The notes beneath the pieces are model-generated. The model saw nothing but the letters and a program-made list of their open reading frames with translations, had not been told where the DNA came from and searched no databases. This document shows, one piece after another, positions 6,264 to 23,848 of a stretch of DNA of 23,962 nt (within the stretch, counting starts at the first letter, position 1; each line of letters starts with the position of its first letter). The position numbers and the translations under genes were made by a program. The stretch is taken from positions 327,855 to 351,816 of the forward strand of contig WELB01000154.1 in assembly GCA_009602725.1 (NCBI GenBank), read 5' to 3'. Source of the DNA: Spirogloea muscicola (lineage: Eukaryota > Streptophyta > Zygnematophyceae > Spirogloeales > Spirogloeaceae).

Positions 6264-6735
6264 AAAAAAAGGTTTTCGTGTATTTGAAACAAACGTAGGC
6301 CAAATGGACAAGTACAAAGGCAAGCTCATTTAAAGATCTACATAACCTACGGCAGATTGACCCGCTCAGTAACCACGGGTCAAAACATGAAGGTCACTGG
6401 TCGATGCATGAATACTAGATGCCCGAAACGAAGCCCTTCTGCCACCAACTAGAGCCCGCCCAGCTTTCTGGTGCAAGGCACTAGCCTGAGCACGCTGCAA
6501 ACAGGCCGAAACTCGTCGTCGCAAGAGCGACAGATATGCAGCTGGCAAGCCCATCTCAGCCGGAAACACATCTGCACGTCGAGTGTAGCCTTGATTGGCA
6601 ATGTTTTGAAGGAGAGTATGGAAACGAGGACCCAGACAGCCAAAGATGTCGATTGCCGCTGGCAGGAGCTGATCGCATTGGGGGTAATTGGAGTAGTGCT
6701 GCAGTTTTCTTTGTTCTGCACCGCCCACTGCGAAA
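6264..6735 (-). mobile_element. LINE-B, 5'-truncated antisense copy with intact 3' end
   Basis: On the minus strand the frame from 6728 to 6366 reads GGAEQRKLQHYSNYP, PAAIDIFGCLGPRF, ADVFPAEMGLPAA, then KAGRALVGGRRAS and SDLHVLTRGY before the stop. It aligns with the end of the LINE-A ORF (AIDTHGALGARW, VDFPAAGSL, RAGRALAA, SDLRLLSRGY), but is clearly a second family. The 3' UTR follows (GCCTTTGTACTTG, TTTCAAATACACG). GGCAGG at 6258-6263 and 6736-6741 may be a short target-site duplication. This copy carries the uninterrupted RAL/VGG site used by the big LINE-A insertion. Confidence 0.88.
6357..6383 (-). other. 8-bp hairpin spanning the LINE-B stop codon
   Basis: TTGACCCG at 6357-6364 and CGGGTCAA at 6376-6383 form a perfect 8-bp inverted repeat with an 11-nt loop that contains the stop codon of the antisense LINE-B frame. 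The same structure is seen at 16501-16527 and, with one mismatch, at 23215-23241. Confidence 0.75.
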
Positions 6736-11142: not shown

Positions 11143-11914
11143 TTTTGGGCTGGCTTGCACTGATCATGCTAATCAGGACCAACCTTTCCATCATCAGCAT
11201 GCAAATTTTACTAGGTGGAGATTCCCCAGTAGTGGAGTTGGAAGTAGGGTGCTGATTGTGCACTTGCTCGCATATGGCTTGAGGCAGGCTTGTGGAGTCC
11301 TCATTGATTCTCTATCTCTTGCCTCTTTGCAGGCATAGTGCATCCTTCCAAGAGAGTGCATTTGTCAGAATGATTGTGCAGGCATTGCAGGGGACTTGGG
11401 GAGCCCATTGCAGATGTCAAGCGACTTGCCAATGGAAGGGGTCACTAGAGCGGACCCTGCCCAAGACGTCTCAACCTCAGACGTCTCAACCTCATCCGCG
11501 CCACGTCTAAGGGCTGGCCTCTCACAAGCATTGCCTTTCTTTTACTGAGCTACTGCTGTCTTTTTCTCTTCTTTTGGGCTGGCCTCTCACAGCCATCTTC
11601 TTACTTTGACAGTCTTGTCCATTCCTTTCCTGCGGCTGCTTAACAGGCAATACTGAGCACCCAATGGCCACTTGAGTCGCTGTGTGCTTCAGCTGCTGAC
11701 TCGGGGTTATTGATCGCCCATTCGCTGTAGTGTCTAGCATAGCTGTGTGGTTTTGGCGCCATTGGACCTTGTTCAATTTTTTGGGCTGGCCTTTCACAGC
11801 CCCTGCCTTATATTTGGAAGAGCTGGTGATTGGTGGGCTGGCCTCTCCACAGTCTTTGCCTTACACTGGAAGAGCTGTTTCAGTTCATTTATGTACCTTG
11901 TTCATTTCTTTCAT
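11143..11914 (+). repeat. Cluster of decayed LINE-A-type tails
   Basis: At least four GGGCTGGC-type motifs occur (about 11149, 11575, 11782, 11837), two followed by CACAGCC arms. There are also CATTCTTTT-like leaders, the phrase TTTGGAAGAGCTG, and a corrupted tail start, CTGCGGCTGCTTAACAGG, near 11630. Homology fades between copies, so these look like old insertions layered on one another. A perfect 15-bp tandem pair (AGACGTCTCAACCTC) sits at 11464-11493. Confidence 0.6.
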
Positions 11915-12274
11915 CGCCGCACACTTGACATTGTGGGCGTGCAACCTGGTGGAGGACCACGGGCATTGGTCGATGTCGTTGTTACTGAGGCGTGTAAAGG
12001 TCCAGCATCGACACACATCGCTGGTCACGCAGTGGGGGGTGCAGAACAAAGAAAGCTGCAGCACTACTCCGACTACCCCCAATGCAATCAGCTCCTGCCA
12101 GCGGCAGTCGACATCTTTGGCTGTCTGGGTCCTCGTTTCCACAAACTCCTCCAGAATATGATGAATATTGCCAGTTTAGGCTACACACATTGTGCAGATG
12201 TGTTTCCGGCTGAGATGGGCTTGCCAGCTGCAGTGTGTCATTCTTGCAACGACAGGTTTCAGCCTGTTTGCAGT
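11915..12274 (+). mobile_element. LINE-B host copy, first segment: endonuclease domain and C-terminal region
   Basis: The frame reads RRTLDIVGVQPGGGPRALVD followed by VVVTEAC, parallel to LINE-A RRVDLVATRQAGGPRLLLD and VVTTDAY, so it carries the restriction-like endonuclease core. It continues GGAEQRKLQHYSDYP, PAAVDIFGCLGPRF and ADVFPAEMGLPAA, as in the antisense LINE-B at 6264-6735. It breaks at TTGCAGT (12268-12274), where a LINE-A tail is inserted. The reading frame has small shifts near 12160 and 12240, so this copy is inactive. Its continuation is at 12461-12510 and then 16431-16610. Confidence 0.85.
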
Positions 12275-12460
12275 ACCCTAGCCTCTCTGATTTGCGGCTG
12301 CTTAGCAGGGGTTACTGAGTAATTTGTAGCTGCTTTCTTTCTTTGTGTGCTTTGGTTTCTTAGCGCTTCCTCTGGCTTCCTCTGGCCCCCTTCTCGTTCT
12401 TTGTTCATTCTTTTTTGGGCTGGCTTGTCCAGCCCCTATCCTCAATGGGCGAGCCCTTTC
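12275..12460 (+). mobile_element. 5'-truncated LINE-A insertion (186 bp) inside LINE-B, 7-bp duplication
   Basis: The insert contains the end of the LINE-A ORF (SDLRLLSRGY and stop, 12285-12319) and the 3' UTR with hairpin GGGCTGG CTTGT CCAGCCC, ending AATGGGCGAGCCCTTTC. TTGCAGT flanks it at 12268-12274 and 12461-12467. Left and right LINE-B flanks join across a single TTGCAGT exactly as in the antisense LINE-B near 6500 (TTTGCAGCGTGCTCAGG). It is more diverged from the long LINE-A than the copy at 631-792, so it is probably older. Confidence 0.9.
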
Positions 12461-15400
12461 TTGCAGTGTGCTCAGGCTAATGCTTTACACCGGAGAGCTG
12501 GGCGAGCCCTCGCCGCCTTCCATGCCGCCACCACGCCACCTCCGCCGCAGCCCCCCCTTCTTCCGCCGTCGCCACCCTCGCCTGCGAAGCCCCCGCGCGC
12601 GCCGTGCCCCACCTGCCCGCGGGATTTCGCAACTCCCCATGGTGTCTCTGTGCATCGGCGACACTGCAAGGGGCATGCCAGCCCCACCGGCCCGCCGCCC
12701 GCAGCGGCCGTCGCGGCTTGCAGCCCCATCGTCCAGGCCCTGGCATCCACTCGGGCGGAGCATTCCACGGAGCATTCCACGGAGCATTCCACGGAGGCCA
12801 CTACTCTATCGCCTCCCGCCCGAGAGAAGTGTCGGGCACCAACGTTATCGCCTCCACCCCTGAGAAGCGAGGGGACCCACGAGGTGACCACGCTCCTCCA
12901 TCCTCAGGGTACCATGTCCCATGTGCTCGGCCCTGACGCCCCTGAGTGTGCTTCTCCGGCGACAGTGGTGCGGCAGCCGCTACCGCCCGCCGAGCCGTCG
13001 TCACCACAGCCGCCGACGTCCCCACCGCCCCCACCTCCTCCGACGCCGCCTTCCCGATCATCCGCCATCCCGCCTCTCGAGCCGCCCAGCCTTCCACAGT
13101 CGGCGCCATCGACGCCCCCCCCATCTCCGCCGCCTCCACCCCCGCCGAGCGAGCCGGCTCCACCGCCGTCGCCCTCTCCTCCCTCGCCCGACCCGCCTCG
13201 GTGCCAGCTTTGCCAGAGGACCTTCACCACGCGGTCCGGCCGGTCCAACCACCAGCGAACTTGCGCGGGCAACATCAACCGTGCGGAGCAGGCGCGGAGC
13301 GCAGCGGCGGCGGGTGGTCGTCGGGGCAGACCAGGCAGGCCTCCCGCGCCGTCCCCGCCCACGCCTCACCACTGGCAGTGGCTGGCCGACCTTGACCTGG
13401 CCGCAGTTCACCGCCAGGCGGCCCTGCCGCTCCTACGCCATGTTCCACGCTGGGCACGCCCACACCTCCGCCGCGCGCTCCGCCCGGTGACACAGCGGAT
13501 CGTCGTGGACCACAGAGACGAGGCGGCGTGGAAGCTGTTCATCCTCTTCCCCCGGCTGTTGCTCGGGCGGGTCTCTCTCGACAGCCGCAAGCAGGGCCAG
13601 CAGCCCCTCTTGGAACGCGTCCAGTTGTTCGAGAGCGGGCACTGGGAGGAGCTCCTGGCGAGGCACGACGCAGCCGTGGCGGCATCCGAAGCCAACCGTG
13701 GTGGTCGAGGGGCAACACACGACCGGGCCGCCAGCGTCCGCAGGGCTCTTCGCTACGGCCACGCGGGCGAGCTCTCCCGGGCTGTGCAGGCCCTGGACGA
13801 TGCGATGCTGGCGCCGACCAATGCGGCAACCCGGGCGGCTCTGGACTCCCTCCACCCCCCGTCCAGCTCCCCCCTGCCACCGTGGTTGGCCGCGTTCGCC
13901 CCGCCGGAGGAGGTGGTCTTGGACGCCGACGCCCTCATGAAGGCTCTCCAGACCAGCCGTCGCGCAGCCGCCGGCGGCCCCTCCCGCATGCTAACTGAGC
14001 ACCTGCGGGAGATCTTCCTTGAGGGTGAGGCAACAGACTTCAACGCGCTGCTGCAGATCTGCCAGCATATGGCCCGCGACAATGTGCCGGCCAGCATCCG
14101 CGGCGTACTGTGCACCAGCACGCTGCTCGCCCTCGACAAGCCGAGCGGGGGAGTCAGGCCCATTGCCATTGGGGAGGTCCTGTACCGCCTGGTGAGCCGC
14201 GTACTCTGGCAGCAGCATGCGGGGCCGGCGCAGGTGCACATGGCGCCACACCAGTACGGCGCGGGGCTGCGGAGTGGGGGCGAGGCCGTCGTCCATGGGG
14301 TTCGTGCGACCTTGGACCAGCACCCGGGGTGGCTGGTGCTGGCCGTTGACGTGAAGAATGCCTTCAACACTGTGGAGCGCGCCAGCATTGCGGAGGAGCT
14401 CCGGGCATCCTTCCCCTCCCTGGTACCCTTTTTCCGCTTGGGGTACGGTCAGCCCAGCGACCTCCTCTGGCGGACAGGGGGAGATCAAGTGGAGGTCCTG
14501 CAGTCCCAAGCGGGCACGCGGCAAGGAGACCCCCTCGCCGGCTTCTACTTTGCGCTCGCTCACCACCGGGCCCTGCAGGCAACCGCCGCGGCACACCCAG
14601 GAGTCCTACTCCCCTCCTTCGCGGACGACACCACCATCGTCGGCCCTCCGGAAGACGTGGCGGCGGCCTTCATCACCCTTGAGCTGCAGCTGGCCACCCT
14701 CGGCCTGTCCACCCGGGCGTCAAAGTGCGCGGCCTGGTCTCCCAGCGGCCTCCCACCCAACCTGACGCTGCCCACCGGCTGCCAAACTCCAGCAGATGGC
14801 TTCACCCTGCTGGGGGTCCCCATCGGCGCGCCGTCCTTCGTGGAGGGGCAGCTGCGAGCCCGCCTGGCGGAGCACCTTCAGCCTGCGGCCCGGCTTCCCG
14901 AGCTGGACGACATGCAACTATCGCTGGCCATGTTGACCAGGGCCATTGGGCAGCGGCCCCAGTACCTGACGCGGGCCACTCCGCCGTCCCCTGGGGCGTT
15001 GGCAGCGTATGCAGATTTCGATGCAAGCATGGTGGCGAGCTTGGCGGCCCTGGTCCGCCACCAGGGCTTCCTCCAGTCGCCAGCAGCTATCCACCAGAGG
15101 GCGCTACCCCTCAGCCACGGTGGTCTCGGCCTGCGCCCGCTCGCTCGTTCTTGCCGGGCGGCATACCTCGGCAGCTGGGCGCAGACTGCCGCCTCCGTGG
15201 CCCAGCGCTTCTTGGTCCACGGCCGGCGGGCACTGGAGCAGGCGGTGGCGGAGGTCGACATGGGCCCGCTGCCGTTCCAGGTGTCGCTTCGCTCCGCCCA
15301 CCAGGAGCTGCTCGCGGCGCACCCGGACCTGGCCGGCCAGGCGGTATCCTTTGCGCACCTCGCGCACACCGCCGACTTGCGCGTCCAAGCGCGCATCGCG

Positions 15401-16309
15401 GCAGTGGTCGACAAGGCCGCCTACACCACCGCCGTGCTCCAGCTCCCCGAGGCCGACTTGCGCGGGCGCGCGAGACTCCACTCGGCCTCTTCCCCGGGGG
15501 CTGCGGCGTGGCTCCAGGCCCTCCCCCTCTACGACGCCCTCACCCTCCCGGACGAGGTATTCCGAAGTGCCGTCCACCGGCTCCTGGGCCTACTGCCGCC
15601 ATGTCTCCAGGGTGTGCGTCAATGTGAGTGTGGCGAGCGCGGGACCGAGCCTGGAGAGCTGGCTGCTCATGTTCTGCGCTGTTCCCACGGCGGAGAGCGG
15701 ACAGCGGCCCACGACCGCCTCCGCGACGTAATGCATGGCATCCTGTTGGAGGCTGGTTTCTCCGTGGCAGCAGAGCACTCCGGAATCATGCCAATCCAGC
15801 ACAGGGCCGACGGTCTCCATGCCAGGCGTGTAGACCTGGTGGCCACCCGACAGGCCGGCGGGCCACGTCTTCTCCTGGACGTGGTGACTACTGATGCCTA
15901 TGACCGCTCACACCCAGCCAAATGTGCCACCACGGCTGGGTATGCGGTCGCCTGCGCTGCTCGGGCCAAAGAGCTGAAGTACGCGGATCATCCGCGGGAA
16001 GACGAGTTCTTCCCGTTGGCCATCGACACACATGGGGCGCTGGGCGCTCGGTGGCTCGAGCTGCTCACCCAGCTCGCCCGCCACACCATCGCCCGGCGCT
16101 TCCATGGGGAGCCGGTTGACTTCCCTGCAGCCGGGTCGCTGGCGCAAGTGTATCGAATGCGCCTGGCCGTCTCGCTGCAGAGGTCCATGGCCCGGGCGCT
16201 GCACCTTCGTGCCGGCAGAGCCCTCGCTGCTGCCTCTGGCTCTGGCCAGGGGACCCACTTCCAGGAGCCCAGCATCTCTGATCTGCGGCTGCTTAGCAGG
16301 GGTTACTGA
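12347..16309 (+). CDS. LINE-A polyprotein: zinc fingers, reverse transcriptase, CCHC, RLE endonuclease
   Basis: The frame is open for about 1320 codons. Numbered from 12347, residues 1-55 are LINE-A tail and LINE-B sequence, so the true element begins near residue 56. Domains: C2H2-type fingers at C87/C90 (CPTCPRDFATPHGVSVHRRH) and C286/C289 (CQLCQRTFTTRSGRSNHQRT), separated by Pro/Ser-rich linkers; RT core with LDKPSGGVRPIAIGEV, catalytic DVKNAFNTV (D668), RQGDPLAGF (725) and FADD (758-761); CCHC knuckle C1093, C1095, H1108, C1112; then RRVDLV (D1163), LLLDVV (D1178) and a downstream K1211, consistent with an R2-type restriction-like endonuclease. It ends SDLRLLSRGY. There is no in-frame ATG between the junction and finger 1; the first is at 12914 (residue 190). 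The ORF is therefore either 5'-truncated, non-AUG initiated, or read through from LINE-B. Confidence 0.95.
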   Translation: MLWFLSASSGFLWPPSRSLFILFWAGLSSPYPQWASPFLQCAQANALHRRAGRALAAFHAATTPPPPQPPLLPPSPPSPAKPPRAPCPTCPRDFATPHGVSVHRRHCKGHASPTGPPPAAAVAACSPIVQALASTRAEHSTEHSTEHSTEATTLSPPAREKCRAPTLSPPPLRSEGTHEVTTLLHPQGTMSHVLGPDAPECASPATVVRQPLPPAEPSSPQPPTSPPPPPPPTPPSRSSAIPPLEPPSLPQSAPSTPPPSPPPPPPPSEPAPPPSPSPPSPDPPRCQLCQRTFTTRSGRSNHQRTCAGNINRAEQARSAAAAGGRRGRPGRPPAPSPPTPHHWQWLADLDLAAVHRQAALPLLRHVPRWARPHLRRALRPVTQRIVVDHRDEAAWKLFILFPRLLLGRVSLDSRKQGQQPLLERVQLFESGHWEELLARHDAAVAASEANRGGRGATHDRAASVRRALRYGHAGELSRAVQALDDAMLAPTNAATRAALDSLHPPSSSPLPPWLAAFAPPEEVVLDADALMKALQTSRRAAAGGPSRMLTEHLREIFLEGEATDFNALLQICQHMARDNVPASIRGVLCTSTLLALDKPSGGVRPIAIGEVLYRLVSRVLWQQHAGPAQVHMAPHQYGAGLRSGGEAVVHGVRATLDQHPGWLVLAVDVKNAFNTVERASIAEELRASFPSLVPFFRLGYGQPSDLLWRTGGDQVEVLQSQAGTRQGDPLAGFYFALAHHRALQATAAAHPGVLLPSFADDTTIVGPPEDVAAAFITLELQLATLGLSTRASKCAAWSPSGLPPNLTLPTGCQTPADGFTLLGVPIGAPSFVEGQLRARLAEHLQPAARLPELDDMQLSLAMLTRAIGQRPQYLTRATPPSPGALAAYADFDASMVASLAALVRHQGFLQSPAAIHQRALPLSHGGLGLRPLARSCRAAYLGSWAQTAASVAQRFLVHGRRALEQAVAEVDMGPLPFQVSLRSAHQELLAAHPDLAGQAVSFAHLAHTADLRVQARIAAVVDKAAYTTAVLQLPEADLRGRARLHSASSPGAAAWLQALPLYDALTLPDEVFRSAVHRLLGLLPPCLQGVRQCECGERGTEPGELAAHVLRCSHGGERTAAHDRLRDVMHGILLEAGFSVAAEHSGIMPIQHRADGLHARRVDLVATRQAGGPRLLLDVVTTDAYDRSHPAKCATTAGYAVACAARAKELKYADHPREDEFFPLAIDTHGALGARWLELLTQLARHTIARRFHGEPVDFPAAGSLAQVYRMRLAVSLQRSMARALHLRAGRALAAASGSGQGTHFQEPSISDLRLLSRGY
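12461..12510 (+). mobile_element. LINE-B host copy, short middle segment
   Basis: The 50 bases read LQCAQANALHRRAGRAL in the long ORF frame, matching LQRAQASALHQKAGRAL in the antisense LINE-B. It is bounded on the left by the LINE-A tail and on the right by the 5' end of the long LINE-A. Homology to LINE-B stops after GGGCGAGCCCT. Confidence 0.88.
12757..12792 (+). repeat. Three perfect tandem copies of a 12-bp unit in LINE-A ORF
   Basis: GGAGCATTCCAC is repeated three times without change, adding EHST three times to the linker between the fingers. The unit keeps the reading frame and looks like a recent slippage expansion. Confidence 0.95.
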
Positions 16310-16385
16310 GTGTCTCGTAGCAGCTTTGTTTCTGTTACTTAGCGCTTCCCCTGGCCCCCTTCTCGTACTCTGTTCATTCTTTTTC

Positions 16386-16404
16386 GGGCTGGTTATTCCA
16401 GCCC
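16386..16404 (+). other. LINE-A 3' UTR hairpin
   Basis: GGGCTGG and CCAGCCC enclose TTATT. The same 7-bp stem with a varying loop occurs at about 259, 747 and 12417, extended to 8 bp at 193-211. Its position, about 25-30 bases before the 3' terminus of each tail, is constant. A role as the RNA structure recognised by the reverse transcriptase is inferred. Confidence 0.8.
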
Positions 16405-16430
16405 CTATTCTCAATGGGCGAGCACTTTCT

Positions 16431-16610
16431 TCTAGTTGGTGGCAGAAGGGCTTCGTATCTGACATCTAGTATTCAGGCATCGATTAGCGACCTTTATGTT
16501 TTGACCCGTGCTTACTGAGCGGGTCAATCTGCTGTAGGTTATGTAGGTCTTGAGATGTGCTTGCCTTTGTGCTTGGCCATTTCGCCTTCATTTGTTTCAA
16601 ATACACGAAT
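16431..16610 (+). mobile_element. LINE-B host copy, last segment with stop codon and 3' UTR
   Basis: Directly after LINE-A the sequence reads LVGGRRASYLTSS, then ASISDLYVLTRAY and a TGA at 16516-16518. This is the part of the LINE-B C-terminus missing from the segment ending at 12510. The 3' UTR follows (CAATCTGCTGTAGGTTATG, TGCTTGCCTTTGTGCTTGG, TTTCAAATACACG) and matches the antisense copies at 6268-6360 and 23126-23212. The perfect hairpin TTGACCCG (16501-16508) / CGGGTCAA (16520-16527) surrounds the stop. Confidence 0.92.
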
Positions 16611-16945
16611 TTTCTTCTTACGTCTTGCTGACTTTTAACAAGCCTTCCGTCGTCAGAGTCTCTCCGTCAGCTGCAGCAGCTCCGCAGCAGCCGCCTCCGC
16701 CGCAGCCGCCGCCTCAGGCAGCGCGAGCTCAACCCCCGCTCCCTCGATGCGGCTCGAAGCAGCGGCGTTGCGGGCTCGAGCGACGCGCTGCAGCGGCGAC
16801 GCCGCCTTTCCTGGACGGCCAGGAGCTGCGCAAGCTCCTGGAGGCTGCCCTCGAGCAGTGCGCCCTCAGCTCGTAGAAGAATATTAAGCGCGCGCCTGTC
16901 AAGCGACCCTGAGCCTGGCCCCGGGGTCCTCTGCTGGCCGGGTTG
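16611..16945 (+). other. Upstream region of the MINDY gene, with Pro/Ala-rich open frame
   Basis: Only about 335 bases separate the LINE-B 3' end from the MINDY start codon, so promoter and 5' UTR must lie here or inside the element. A + frame running out of the LINE-B tail is open to a TAG at 16874-16876, with a Pro/Gln/Ala-rich stretch and FLDGQELRKLLEAALEQCA. It might be an upstream ORF, a stray exon or chance. No TATA or other promoter motif is convincing. Confidence 0.35.
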
Positions 16946-23107: not shown

Positions 23108-23397
23108 AGTGGCTACAATAAACGTGGAAAATTGCGTGTATCTGAAAGAAACGAAGGCCAAATGGCCAAGTGCAAAGGCAAGCACATCTAAATACCTATA
23201 TAACCTACAGAATTTTGACCAGCTCAGTAACCACGGGTCAAAACATGCAGGTTGCTAATTGATGCCTGAATACTAGATGTCAGATACGAAGCCCTTCTGC
23301 CACCAACTAGATCTCGCCCAGCTTTCTGGTGCAAAGCATCAGCCTTGAGCACGCTGCAACCATGCCGAAACTCGTCTCTCTCGCAAGAACGACAAAT
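23108..23397 (-). mobile_element. LINE-B, 5'-truncated antisense copy
   Basis: On the minus strand it reads the C-terminal codons around the uninterrupted site (GCTGGGCGAGATCTAGTTGG), then GTGGCAGAAGGGCTTCG and the stop within the conserved hairpin (23215-23241, one stem mismatch). The 3' UTR ends TTTCAGATACACGC. It is shorter than the copy at 6264-6735, with the 5' end near 23397. Single-base differences and small gaps against the other copies break its frame. Confidence 0.85.
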
Positions 23398-23439: not shown

Positions 23440-23740
23440 CTTTCAGAGGGGGCGAGGGCTGTAATATGCCAGCCCAAAGTGAACAAGGTCCGAAGGGCCT
23501 GAAGACGCTAATAAAGAAATGGAAAGAGCTCGCCCATTGAGGATAGGGACTGGTTGGTAGCTGCTTTGTTTCTTTGTGTGCTTGTTTTTCTTAGCGCTTC
23601 CCCTGGCCCCCTTCTCGTATTCTGTTCATTCTTTTTTGGGCTGGCTTTTCCAGCTGGAAAAGCGCGGAAAAACGCGGCCAGATTATTGGTGGCTGTGAGA
23701 GGCCAGCCCAACGGGATGGACAAGGTCTGAAGTTGCTGGA
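23440..23740. repeat. LINE-A tail fragments, antisense then sense, head to head
   Basis: Antisense pieces carry GCCAGCCCAAAG (about 23469) and AGCTCGCCCATTGAGGATAG (23528-23547). A sense tail follows at once from about 23553 (GTAGCTGCTTTGTTTCTTTG) to GGGCTGGCTTTTCCAGC near 23639-23655, where it breaks off into GGAAAAGCGCGGAAAAACGC. A further antisense hairpin arm (GAGGCCAGCCCAACGG) is at about 23699. Repeated insertion or inversion among tails explains this best. Confidence 0.7.
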
Positions 23741-23753
23741 GTGCTAAATACTA

Positions 23754-23848
23754 CGCTGGGCGCTCGGTGGCTCGAGCTGCTCACCCAGCTCGCCCGCCAC
23801 ACCATCGCCCGGCGCTTCCATGGGGAGCCGGTTGACTTCCCTGCAGCC
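23754..23848 (+). mobile_element. 95-bp internal LINE-A fragment identical to 16038-16132
   Basis: Every base of 23754-23848 equals 16038-16132 by eye, covering the codons for ALGARWLELLTQLARHTIA through VDFPAA. It has neither the 5' end nor the 3' end of the element, so it is not a simple truncated insertion. It lies directly next to the 3' end of an antisense LINE-B copy (about 23863 onward). Confidence 0.93.

What the first reader, a model, noticed from the sequence alone, without database searches (positions are those of the whole stretch)
11915..16610. LINE-A nested in LINE-B at codons for the C-terminal RAL/VGG motif, with empty sites in the same window
LINE-B homology stops at 12510 (RAGRAL codons) and resumes at 16431 (VGGRRAS codons), with a 3.9-kb LINE-A between. 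The antisense LINE-B copies at 6264-6735 and 23108-23397 carry the same site uninterrupted (AGCTGGGCGGGCTCTAGTTG and AGCTGGGCGAGATCTAGTTG). This gives direct pre- and post-insertion evidence. R2-superclade elements are known for sequence-specific targets, so a LINE that uses a sister LINE's coding end as its landing site would be unusual.
Basis: partly seen in the sequence, partly recalled or inferred. Interest (0 to 1): 0.82.

Follow-up and report, generated by a model that had tools for sequence, protein, structure and literature searches.

The report
Retrotransposon nested in sister retrotransposon's end
A jumping gene of the R2 type sits inside the tail end of a related jumping gene; the exact spot has been hit many times in this genome, but it is one of several preferred spots in the tails of such elements rather than a dedicated landing site.

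Summary
The nested insertion is real. LINE-A (12507-16433) splits the last codons of LINE-B; the joined flanks match two intact antisense LINE-B copies with only a 4-nt ambiguity. LINE-A is R2-like and 5'-truncated by about 185 nt. The same LINE-B copy also holds an older 188-nt LINE-A-like tail (12275-12462) with a 5-bp target duplication. The exact LINE-A 3' end occurs 1390 times. By pattern, 13 places (window included) have a LINE-A-type 3' end at this LINE-B site, 11 of them with LINE-B demonstrably to the right; 941 matching sites are intact. In a 60-nt test stretch 8 of 14 sense junctions fall on this point. So it is not chance, but it takes only about 1% of copies (1 of 98 sampled). Two further hot spots lie in LINE 3' UTRs (23 and 20 places). 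Of 98 sampled 3' flanks 82 match LINE-rich sequence, against 8 of 43 random places. Best reading: a relaxed-specificity R2-superclade LINE that favours certain points in LINE 3' ends, like Zepp's self-nesting but with R2-type machinery and dispersed. What it recognises is unknown: a 9-nt motif does not explain it, and selection or regional bias may add to the broad pattern.

The parts
11909..12274 (+). LINE-B C-terminal coding region, left part (ends in target duplication GCAGT 12270-12274)
   Evidence: protein similarity to the LINE-A C-terminus about 39%
12275..12462 (+). older nested insertion: 5'-truncated LINE-A-like 3' tail of 188 nt
   Evidence: 77% identical to the LINE-A 3' end; GCAGT on both sides
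12463..12506 (+). LINE-B middle part up to the LINE-A insertion point (GCTGGGCGAG)
12507..16433 (+). LINE-A, R2-like non-LTR retrotransposon, 5'-truncated by about 185 nt
12507..16309 (+). LINE-A ORF, open to the TGA at 16307-16309 but lacking its probable start
   Evidence: stop-to-stop frame 12323-16309; in two fuller copies the frame continues upstream with a possible start MGSAAACSS
14135..14821 (+). reverse transcriptase domain (RVT_1)
   Evidence: E 8.3e-16; three R2 proteins are the only solved-structure matches at E<=0.001
13199..13261 (+). C2H2-type zinc finger (below Pfam cut-off)
   Evidence: E 0.087-0.15; aligns weakly with an R2 protein's zinc finger
15623..15984 (+). CCHC motif and presumed restriction-like endonuclease region
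   Evidence: motif read by eye in the translation; predicted a-b-b-b-a-b core at low confidence
16310..16433 (+). LINE-A 3' UTR with GGGCTGG...CCAGCCC hairpin and TTCTTCT end; holds the hot-spot point 16334-16337
16434..16613 (+). LINE-B right part, stop codon TGA at 16516-16518
6274..6732 (-). intact LINE-B 3' end, empty site
23127..23397 (-). intact LINE-B 3' end, empty site

Best explanation
LINE-A is an abundant, recently active non-LTR retrotransposon of the R2 superclade. It inserts by target-primed reverse transcription, usually 5'-truncated, with short target duplications (clear in 22 of 54 copies examined). Its sampled insertions fall mostly in LINE-like sequence, above all the 3' ends (last codons and 3' UTR), and within these some nucleotides are hit again and again; the LINE-B codon site is one of at least three such points (shown). 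I infer that its protein or RNA recognises some feature at these points, with weak help from a T-rich start of the target. That recognition is not resolved: a 9-nt motif does not account for it.
For: 1390 exact copies of the 22-nt 3' end, 0 of the control pattern. Thirteen places by pattern with a LINE-A-type 3' end at the LINE-B site (8, 5 further, window included). In L157, L155 and L151 LINE-A pieces of 284, 234 and 25 nt have LINE-B on both sides, and the window copy is 3.9 kb: separate events. 8 of 14 sense junctions in a 60-nt stretch lie at the exact point (binomial 3.9e-6; 6 of 12, p 1.8e-4, without the window copy and one possible duplicate). 20 places at GTAGCTGCT of another LINE's UTR, 17 of them TTTGTAGCTGCT, and 23 at TTAGCGCTTCC. 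82 of 98 3' flanks match a LINE-rich set at E<=1e-6 against 8 of 43 random places; with LINE-A/LINE-B references only, 49 of 98 against 5 of 43. LINE-like coverage 0.46-0.52 within 300 nt of 28 insertions, 0.16 at 1.1-1.5 kb, 0.067 in 26 random places. Target duplications of 7 nt or more in 22 of 54 copies against 2.7 in shuffled pairs. Sense bias 39 to 20, 2 mixed.
Against: A 9-nt matrix from 97 sites ranks the LINE-B point 33rd of 458 in its best register and 79th to 303rd in four others; high-scoring positions are hardly denser in LINE flanks than in random DNA (5.5% against 4.8% at score 2 or more; 0.58% against 0.26% at 4 or more). 32 of 54 copies show no duplication of 7 nt or more. Two of the 8 places (L154, L158) show no LINE-B match next to the point. 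Coverage is still above background at 1.1-1.5 kb, so part of the pattern is regional. The offset test gave only a modest peak. By the three pattern counts about 96% of copies are not at the three named points.
Confidence: 0.62

Rival explanations
1. Insertion is nearly random; selection removes copies that hit genes, so survivors pile up in LINE islands.
For: Coverage by LINE-like DNA stays above background up to 1.5 kb away; copies with other flanks are common.
Against: Does not give recurrence at single nucleotides: about 300 times a uniform expectation at two points (a rough figure), 8 of 14 within one 60-nt stretch, and a sense bias.
Confidence: 0.2
2. Many LINE-A/LINE-X joints are chimeras made by template jumping of the reverse transcriptase, not nested insertions.
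For: Sense bias; 32 of 54 joints without a long duplication; two of the joints at TTAGCGC lack the upstream UTR on the left (L224, L226; left flanks). R2 template jumping is recalled, not looked up.
Against: LINE-B lies on both sides in the window and in L151, L155, L157; 22 of 54 have duplications of 7 nt or more; antisense cases exist.
Confidence: 0.12
3. LINE-A is a strictly site-specific element whose target is the LINE-B RAL/VGG codons.
For: 13 places by pattern at this point; 8 of 14 in the local test.
Against: 1 of 98 sampled copies is there; 941 intact sites remain; comparable recurrence at two other points.
Confidence: 0.02

Closest known systems
Zepp and Zepp-like LINEs of green algae
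   Same: Nested insertion that targets existing copies and builds up 5'-truncated 3' ends (passage in PMC8226300; clusters of nested elements in PMC3446292, passages).
   Different: Zepp is of the L1 clade and forms one cluster per chromosome (same passages); LINE-A has an R2-like RT, no apurinic-type endonuclease found, is dispersed, and enters several different LINE families.
R2 and non-site-specific R2-like LINEs
   Same: RT closest to R2 proteins; frequent 5' truncation; R2 families without target specificity are described (abstract of PMC5035012; title and passages of PMC7650587).
   Different: R2 proper targets 28S rDNA; LINE-A's recurrent targets are LINE 3' ends.
HERO, NeSL and Utopia LINEs with restriction-like endonuclease
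   Same: Same endonuclease class presumed; HERO holds many non-specific families and some Utopia families have weak specificity (passages of PMC4640811).
   Different: The targets named there are microsatellites, snRNA, tRNA or rRNA genes. Clade placement of LINE-A was not tested here.
Tx1-type LINEs in transposons
   Same: A LINE that targets another transposon (transposons are named among LINE targets in a passage of PMC4640811; the Tx1 detail is recalled).
   Different: Tx1 elements use an apurinic-type endonuclease (passage of PMC4640811); their greater specificity is recalled.

Membership tests
R2 superclade (restriction-like-endonuclease LINEs) | LINE reverse transcriptase closest to R2 proteins | tested here: met
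   RVT_1 E 8.3e-16; the only solved-structure matches at E<=0.001 are three R2 proteins. No tree with other clades was made
R2 superclade (restriction-like-endonuclease LINEs) | single long ORF with N-terminal zinc finger(s) | tested here: inconclusive
   one ORF, about 1,267 codons of it in the window copy; two C2H2-like motifs visible, Pfam below cut-off
R2 superclade (restriction-like-endonuclease LINEs) | C-terminal CCHC motif and PD-(D/E)xK endonuclease | tested here: inconclusive
   CCHC motif read by eye; model mean pLDDT 48 with a-b-b-b-a-b core; fold search had no match at E<=0.001, top ranks are Tdp2 chains, R2 proteins at ranks 13 and 46
R2 superclade (restriction-like-endonuclease LINEs) | no apurinic-type endonuclease | tested here: met
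   no such domain listed by Pfam up to E 10; the window copy lacks about its first 36 codons
R2 proper | insertion in 28S rDNA | tested here: not met
   flanks of 98 sampled copies differ, 82 of them LINE-like; rDNA itself was not searched
Zepp-type self-nesting LINEs | nested insertion into 3' ends of existing LINE copies | tested here: met
Zepp-type self-nesting LINEs | L1 clade with apurinic-type endonuclease | tested here: not met
Zepp-type self-nesting LINEs | one cluster per chromosome | tested here: not met
   1390 exact 3' ends; of the 100 places listed, 35 are spread over the 2.3 Mb of contig C1

The most novel reading that the evidence does not exclude
An R2-superclade LINE has shifted from host-gene targets to recognising the 3' ends of LINEs as a class, including its own UTR, so that LINEs serve as dispersed safe havens for one another across the whole genome; the LINE-B codon site is one of its recognised sequences.
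Probability: 0.3. Interest if true: 0.65.

Novelty: new variant of a known kind. Interest (0 to 1): 0.45.

Why it matters
Target choice of R2-type proteins is of practical interest for gene insertion, and members without a fixed target show how specificity is lost or changed. A family with more than a thousand copies of one exact 3' end, empty sites and recurrent insertion points is a natural data set for learning what such a protein recognises when it is not tied to rDNA. It also suggests a way in which LINEs could spare genes.

Tried and rejected
Rejected: strict site specificity for LINE-B (1 of 98 sampled copies). Rejected: a single duplicated composite (5' truncations differ). Rejected as full explanation: a short T-rich/TAG motif. 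T is 40-55% at +1 to +4 of 80 flanks against 23% further on, and TAGC is found in the first 8 nt of 11 of 98 flanks against a mean of 3.2, but the 9-nt matrix does not predict the LINE-B point.

Led nowhere: an offset test among 79 flanks gave only a modest peak at zero (29 of 216 sense pairs within 0-9 nt, the next bins about 16). Structure prediction of the C-terminus was of low confidence and its fold search inconclusive. Organism: one exon of a chlorophyll a/b-binding protein was compared; its listed matches are chlorophyll-binding proteins of green-lineage type by name, so a green-lineage host is likely but not identified. Clade placement by tree was not done. One search translated LINE-A in a wrong frame and was not used.

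Rows dropped: 14 of 40 and 3 of 20 random places were N and left out; if all 17 counted as LINE-like the contrast is 82 of 98 against 25 of 60, p 7e-8. Of the first 100 places listed (1390 in all), 98 were fetched; the last two were not, for want of region slots. Of the 20 longer copies, 7 had the exact 3' end at the expected place, 5 read N and 8 differed there; their flanks entered only. In one search, 54 of 58 copies had a readable left junction. One search used 28 of the 30 loci (L001 is the window; L002 lacks the exact 22-mer). The query included 47 nt of LINE-B, which favours copies at the LINE-B site, so its loci were not used for frequencies. The LINE-C reference is one of the sampled flanks; one search also gives the count without it.

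Full report
What is there. Window self-comparison shows LINE-B at 12028-12273 and 12461-12510, then LINE-A, then LINE-B again from 16431 to 16613. Two antisense copies (6274-6732; 23127-23397) are uninterrupted. Left and right flanks joined in a script align to both copies through the insertion point with a 4-nt gap (CTCT or ATCT) that either junction can supply, so the insertion removed or duplicated at most a few bases. A second, older insertion lies about 40 bp upstream: 12275-12462, a 188-nt tail 77% identical to the LINE-A 3' end, with GCAGT on both sides.

What LINE-A is. Its frame 12323-16309 holds a reverse transcriptase (E 8.3e-16). The only solved relatives at E<=0.001 are three R2 retrotransposon proteins, and no apurinic-type endonuclease is listed by Pfam up to E 10. 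C2H2-like fingers are visible but below cut-off. The C-terminal model is of low confidence (mean pLDDT 48), with an a-b-b-b-a-b core of the kind expected for a restriction-like endonuclease (the topology rule is recalled); its fold search had no match at E<=0.001 and its top ranks are Tdp2 chains, with R2 proteins at ranks 13 and 46. Two compared fuller copies share about 185 nt more upstream, with a possible ORF start there, so the window copy is truncated. LINE-B has a related C-terminus (33-39% for the two window copies compared).

How common. The 22-nt 3' end occurs 1390 times exactly, control 0. The genome holds 153 Mb in 471 contigs. It gives 68 matches, counted exon by exon, to the chlorophyll a/b-binding family, and the one exon compared is closest to green-lineage proteins.

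Is the site special? By pattern, thirteen places, window included, have a LINE-A-type 3' end at AGT(T/A)GGTGGC: 8 and 5 further. Of the 8, six have LINE-B on the right by BLAST (L151, L152, L153, L155, L156 = window, L157); L154 and L158 show no LINE-B match next to the point. The 5 further places contain a LINE-B anchor by the pattern itself. LINE-B lies directly on both sides of LINE-A pieces of 284, 234 and 25 nt in L157, L155 and L151, and of the window copy. L152 carries a related tail (52 nt at 82%) in a longer insert at the same point. In L153 the next LINE-B fragment on the left is about 1.4 kb away, as if several insertions were stacked. Within 60 nt before a fixed LINE-B anchor, 8 of 14 sense junctions lie at this point (p 3.9e-6, and 1.8e-4 for 6 of 12 after removing the window and one possible duplicate). 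Seven antisense junctions were found in the same region, two of them ten to twelve bases from the point. But 941 such sites are intact, and 1 of 98 sampled copies (L223) is there.

Other points. LINE-A 3' ends abut GTAGCTGCT of another LINE's 3' UTR in 20 places, 17 of them TTTGTAGCTGCT, and TTAGCGCTTCC in LINE-A-type 3' UTRs in 23 places; a longer form of this second sequence has 1948 exact copies. Six of 98 sampled flanks start at this second point (16334-16337 in LINE-A coordinates). Occupancy is about 1.2% and 1.4% per site for the UTR and LINE-B points, each about 300 times a uniform expectation; these are rough figures because numerator and denominator use different patterns.

General preference. 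I took 98 of the first 100 places listed. At E<=1e-6 the 230-nt 3' flank matched the window plus 29 LINE-A loci in 32 of 40, 35 of 40 and 15 of 18, in all 82 of 98. Random places matched in 6 of 26 and 2 of 17, in all 8 of 43. That reference set comes from LINE-A neighbourhoods, so it may favour the flanks; with only LINE-A and LINE-B references the figures are 49 of 98 against 5 of 43. Coverage falls from about 0.5 near 28 insertions to 0.16 at 1.1-1.5 kb, against 0.067 in 26 random places, so the preference is mainly local with a regional part. Orientation to the target LINE, where it could be read (61 of 98), is sense in 39, antisense in 20, mixed in 2 (p 0.018).

Mechanism. Target duplications are seen in many truncated copies; in 22 of 54 they are 7 nt or longer against 2.7 in shuffled pairs. 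This fits ordinary target-primed insertion for at least part of the copies. The target begins T-rich. Pairing of the UUCUUCU RNA end with the nicked target is a natural inference, but a 9-nt matrix ranks the LINE-B point 33rd of 458 in its best register and barely separates LINE flanks from random DNA. Recognition therefore rests on something longer or structural, or the broad pattern is helped by selection. Two joints at TTAGCGC lack the upstream part of the target UTR on the left (L224, L226) and may be template jumps; another, L187, keeps it.

Known relatives. Zepp LINEs of green algae nest into existing copies and build 3'-end arrays (PMC8226300, passage; PMC3446292, passages), but they are L1-clade and clustered. 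LINEs with a restriction-like endonuclease but without target specificity are known (PMC4640811 passages; PMC5035012 abstract; PMC7650587 passages). In the listings I saw no paper describing an R2-type LINE that prefers LINE 3' ends; these searches cover a held library of open papers only.

Verdict. New variant of a known kind.

Noticed in passing
12275-12462: A second nested insertion in the same LINE-B copy: a 188-nt LINE-A-like tail with a GCAGT target duplication.
   Followed up: yes
153-314, 630-791, 23579-23654: Further LINE 3' UTR tails of the same kind; 630-791 is 99% identical to the LINE-A 3' end.
   Followed up: no
23754-23848: A 95-nt stretch 100% identical to LINE-A 16038-16132: another recent fragment near the window end.
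   Followed up: no
16380-16423 and many loci: A GGGCTGG...CCAGCCC hairpin recurs in the 3' UTRs of LINE tails in the window and in sampled flanks, possibly the part read by the reverse transcriptase.
   Followed up: partly
L154 and L025: Several LINE-A-type tails close together, so nesting or chaining goes several levels deep.
   Followed up: no
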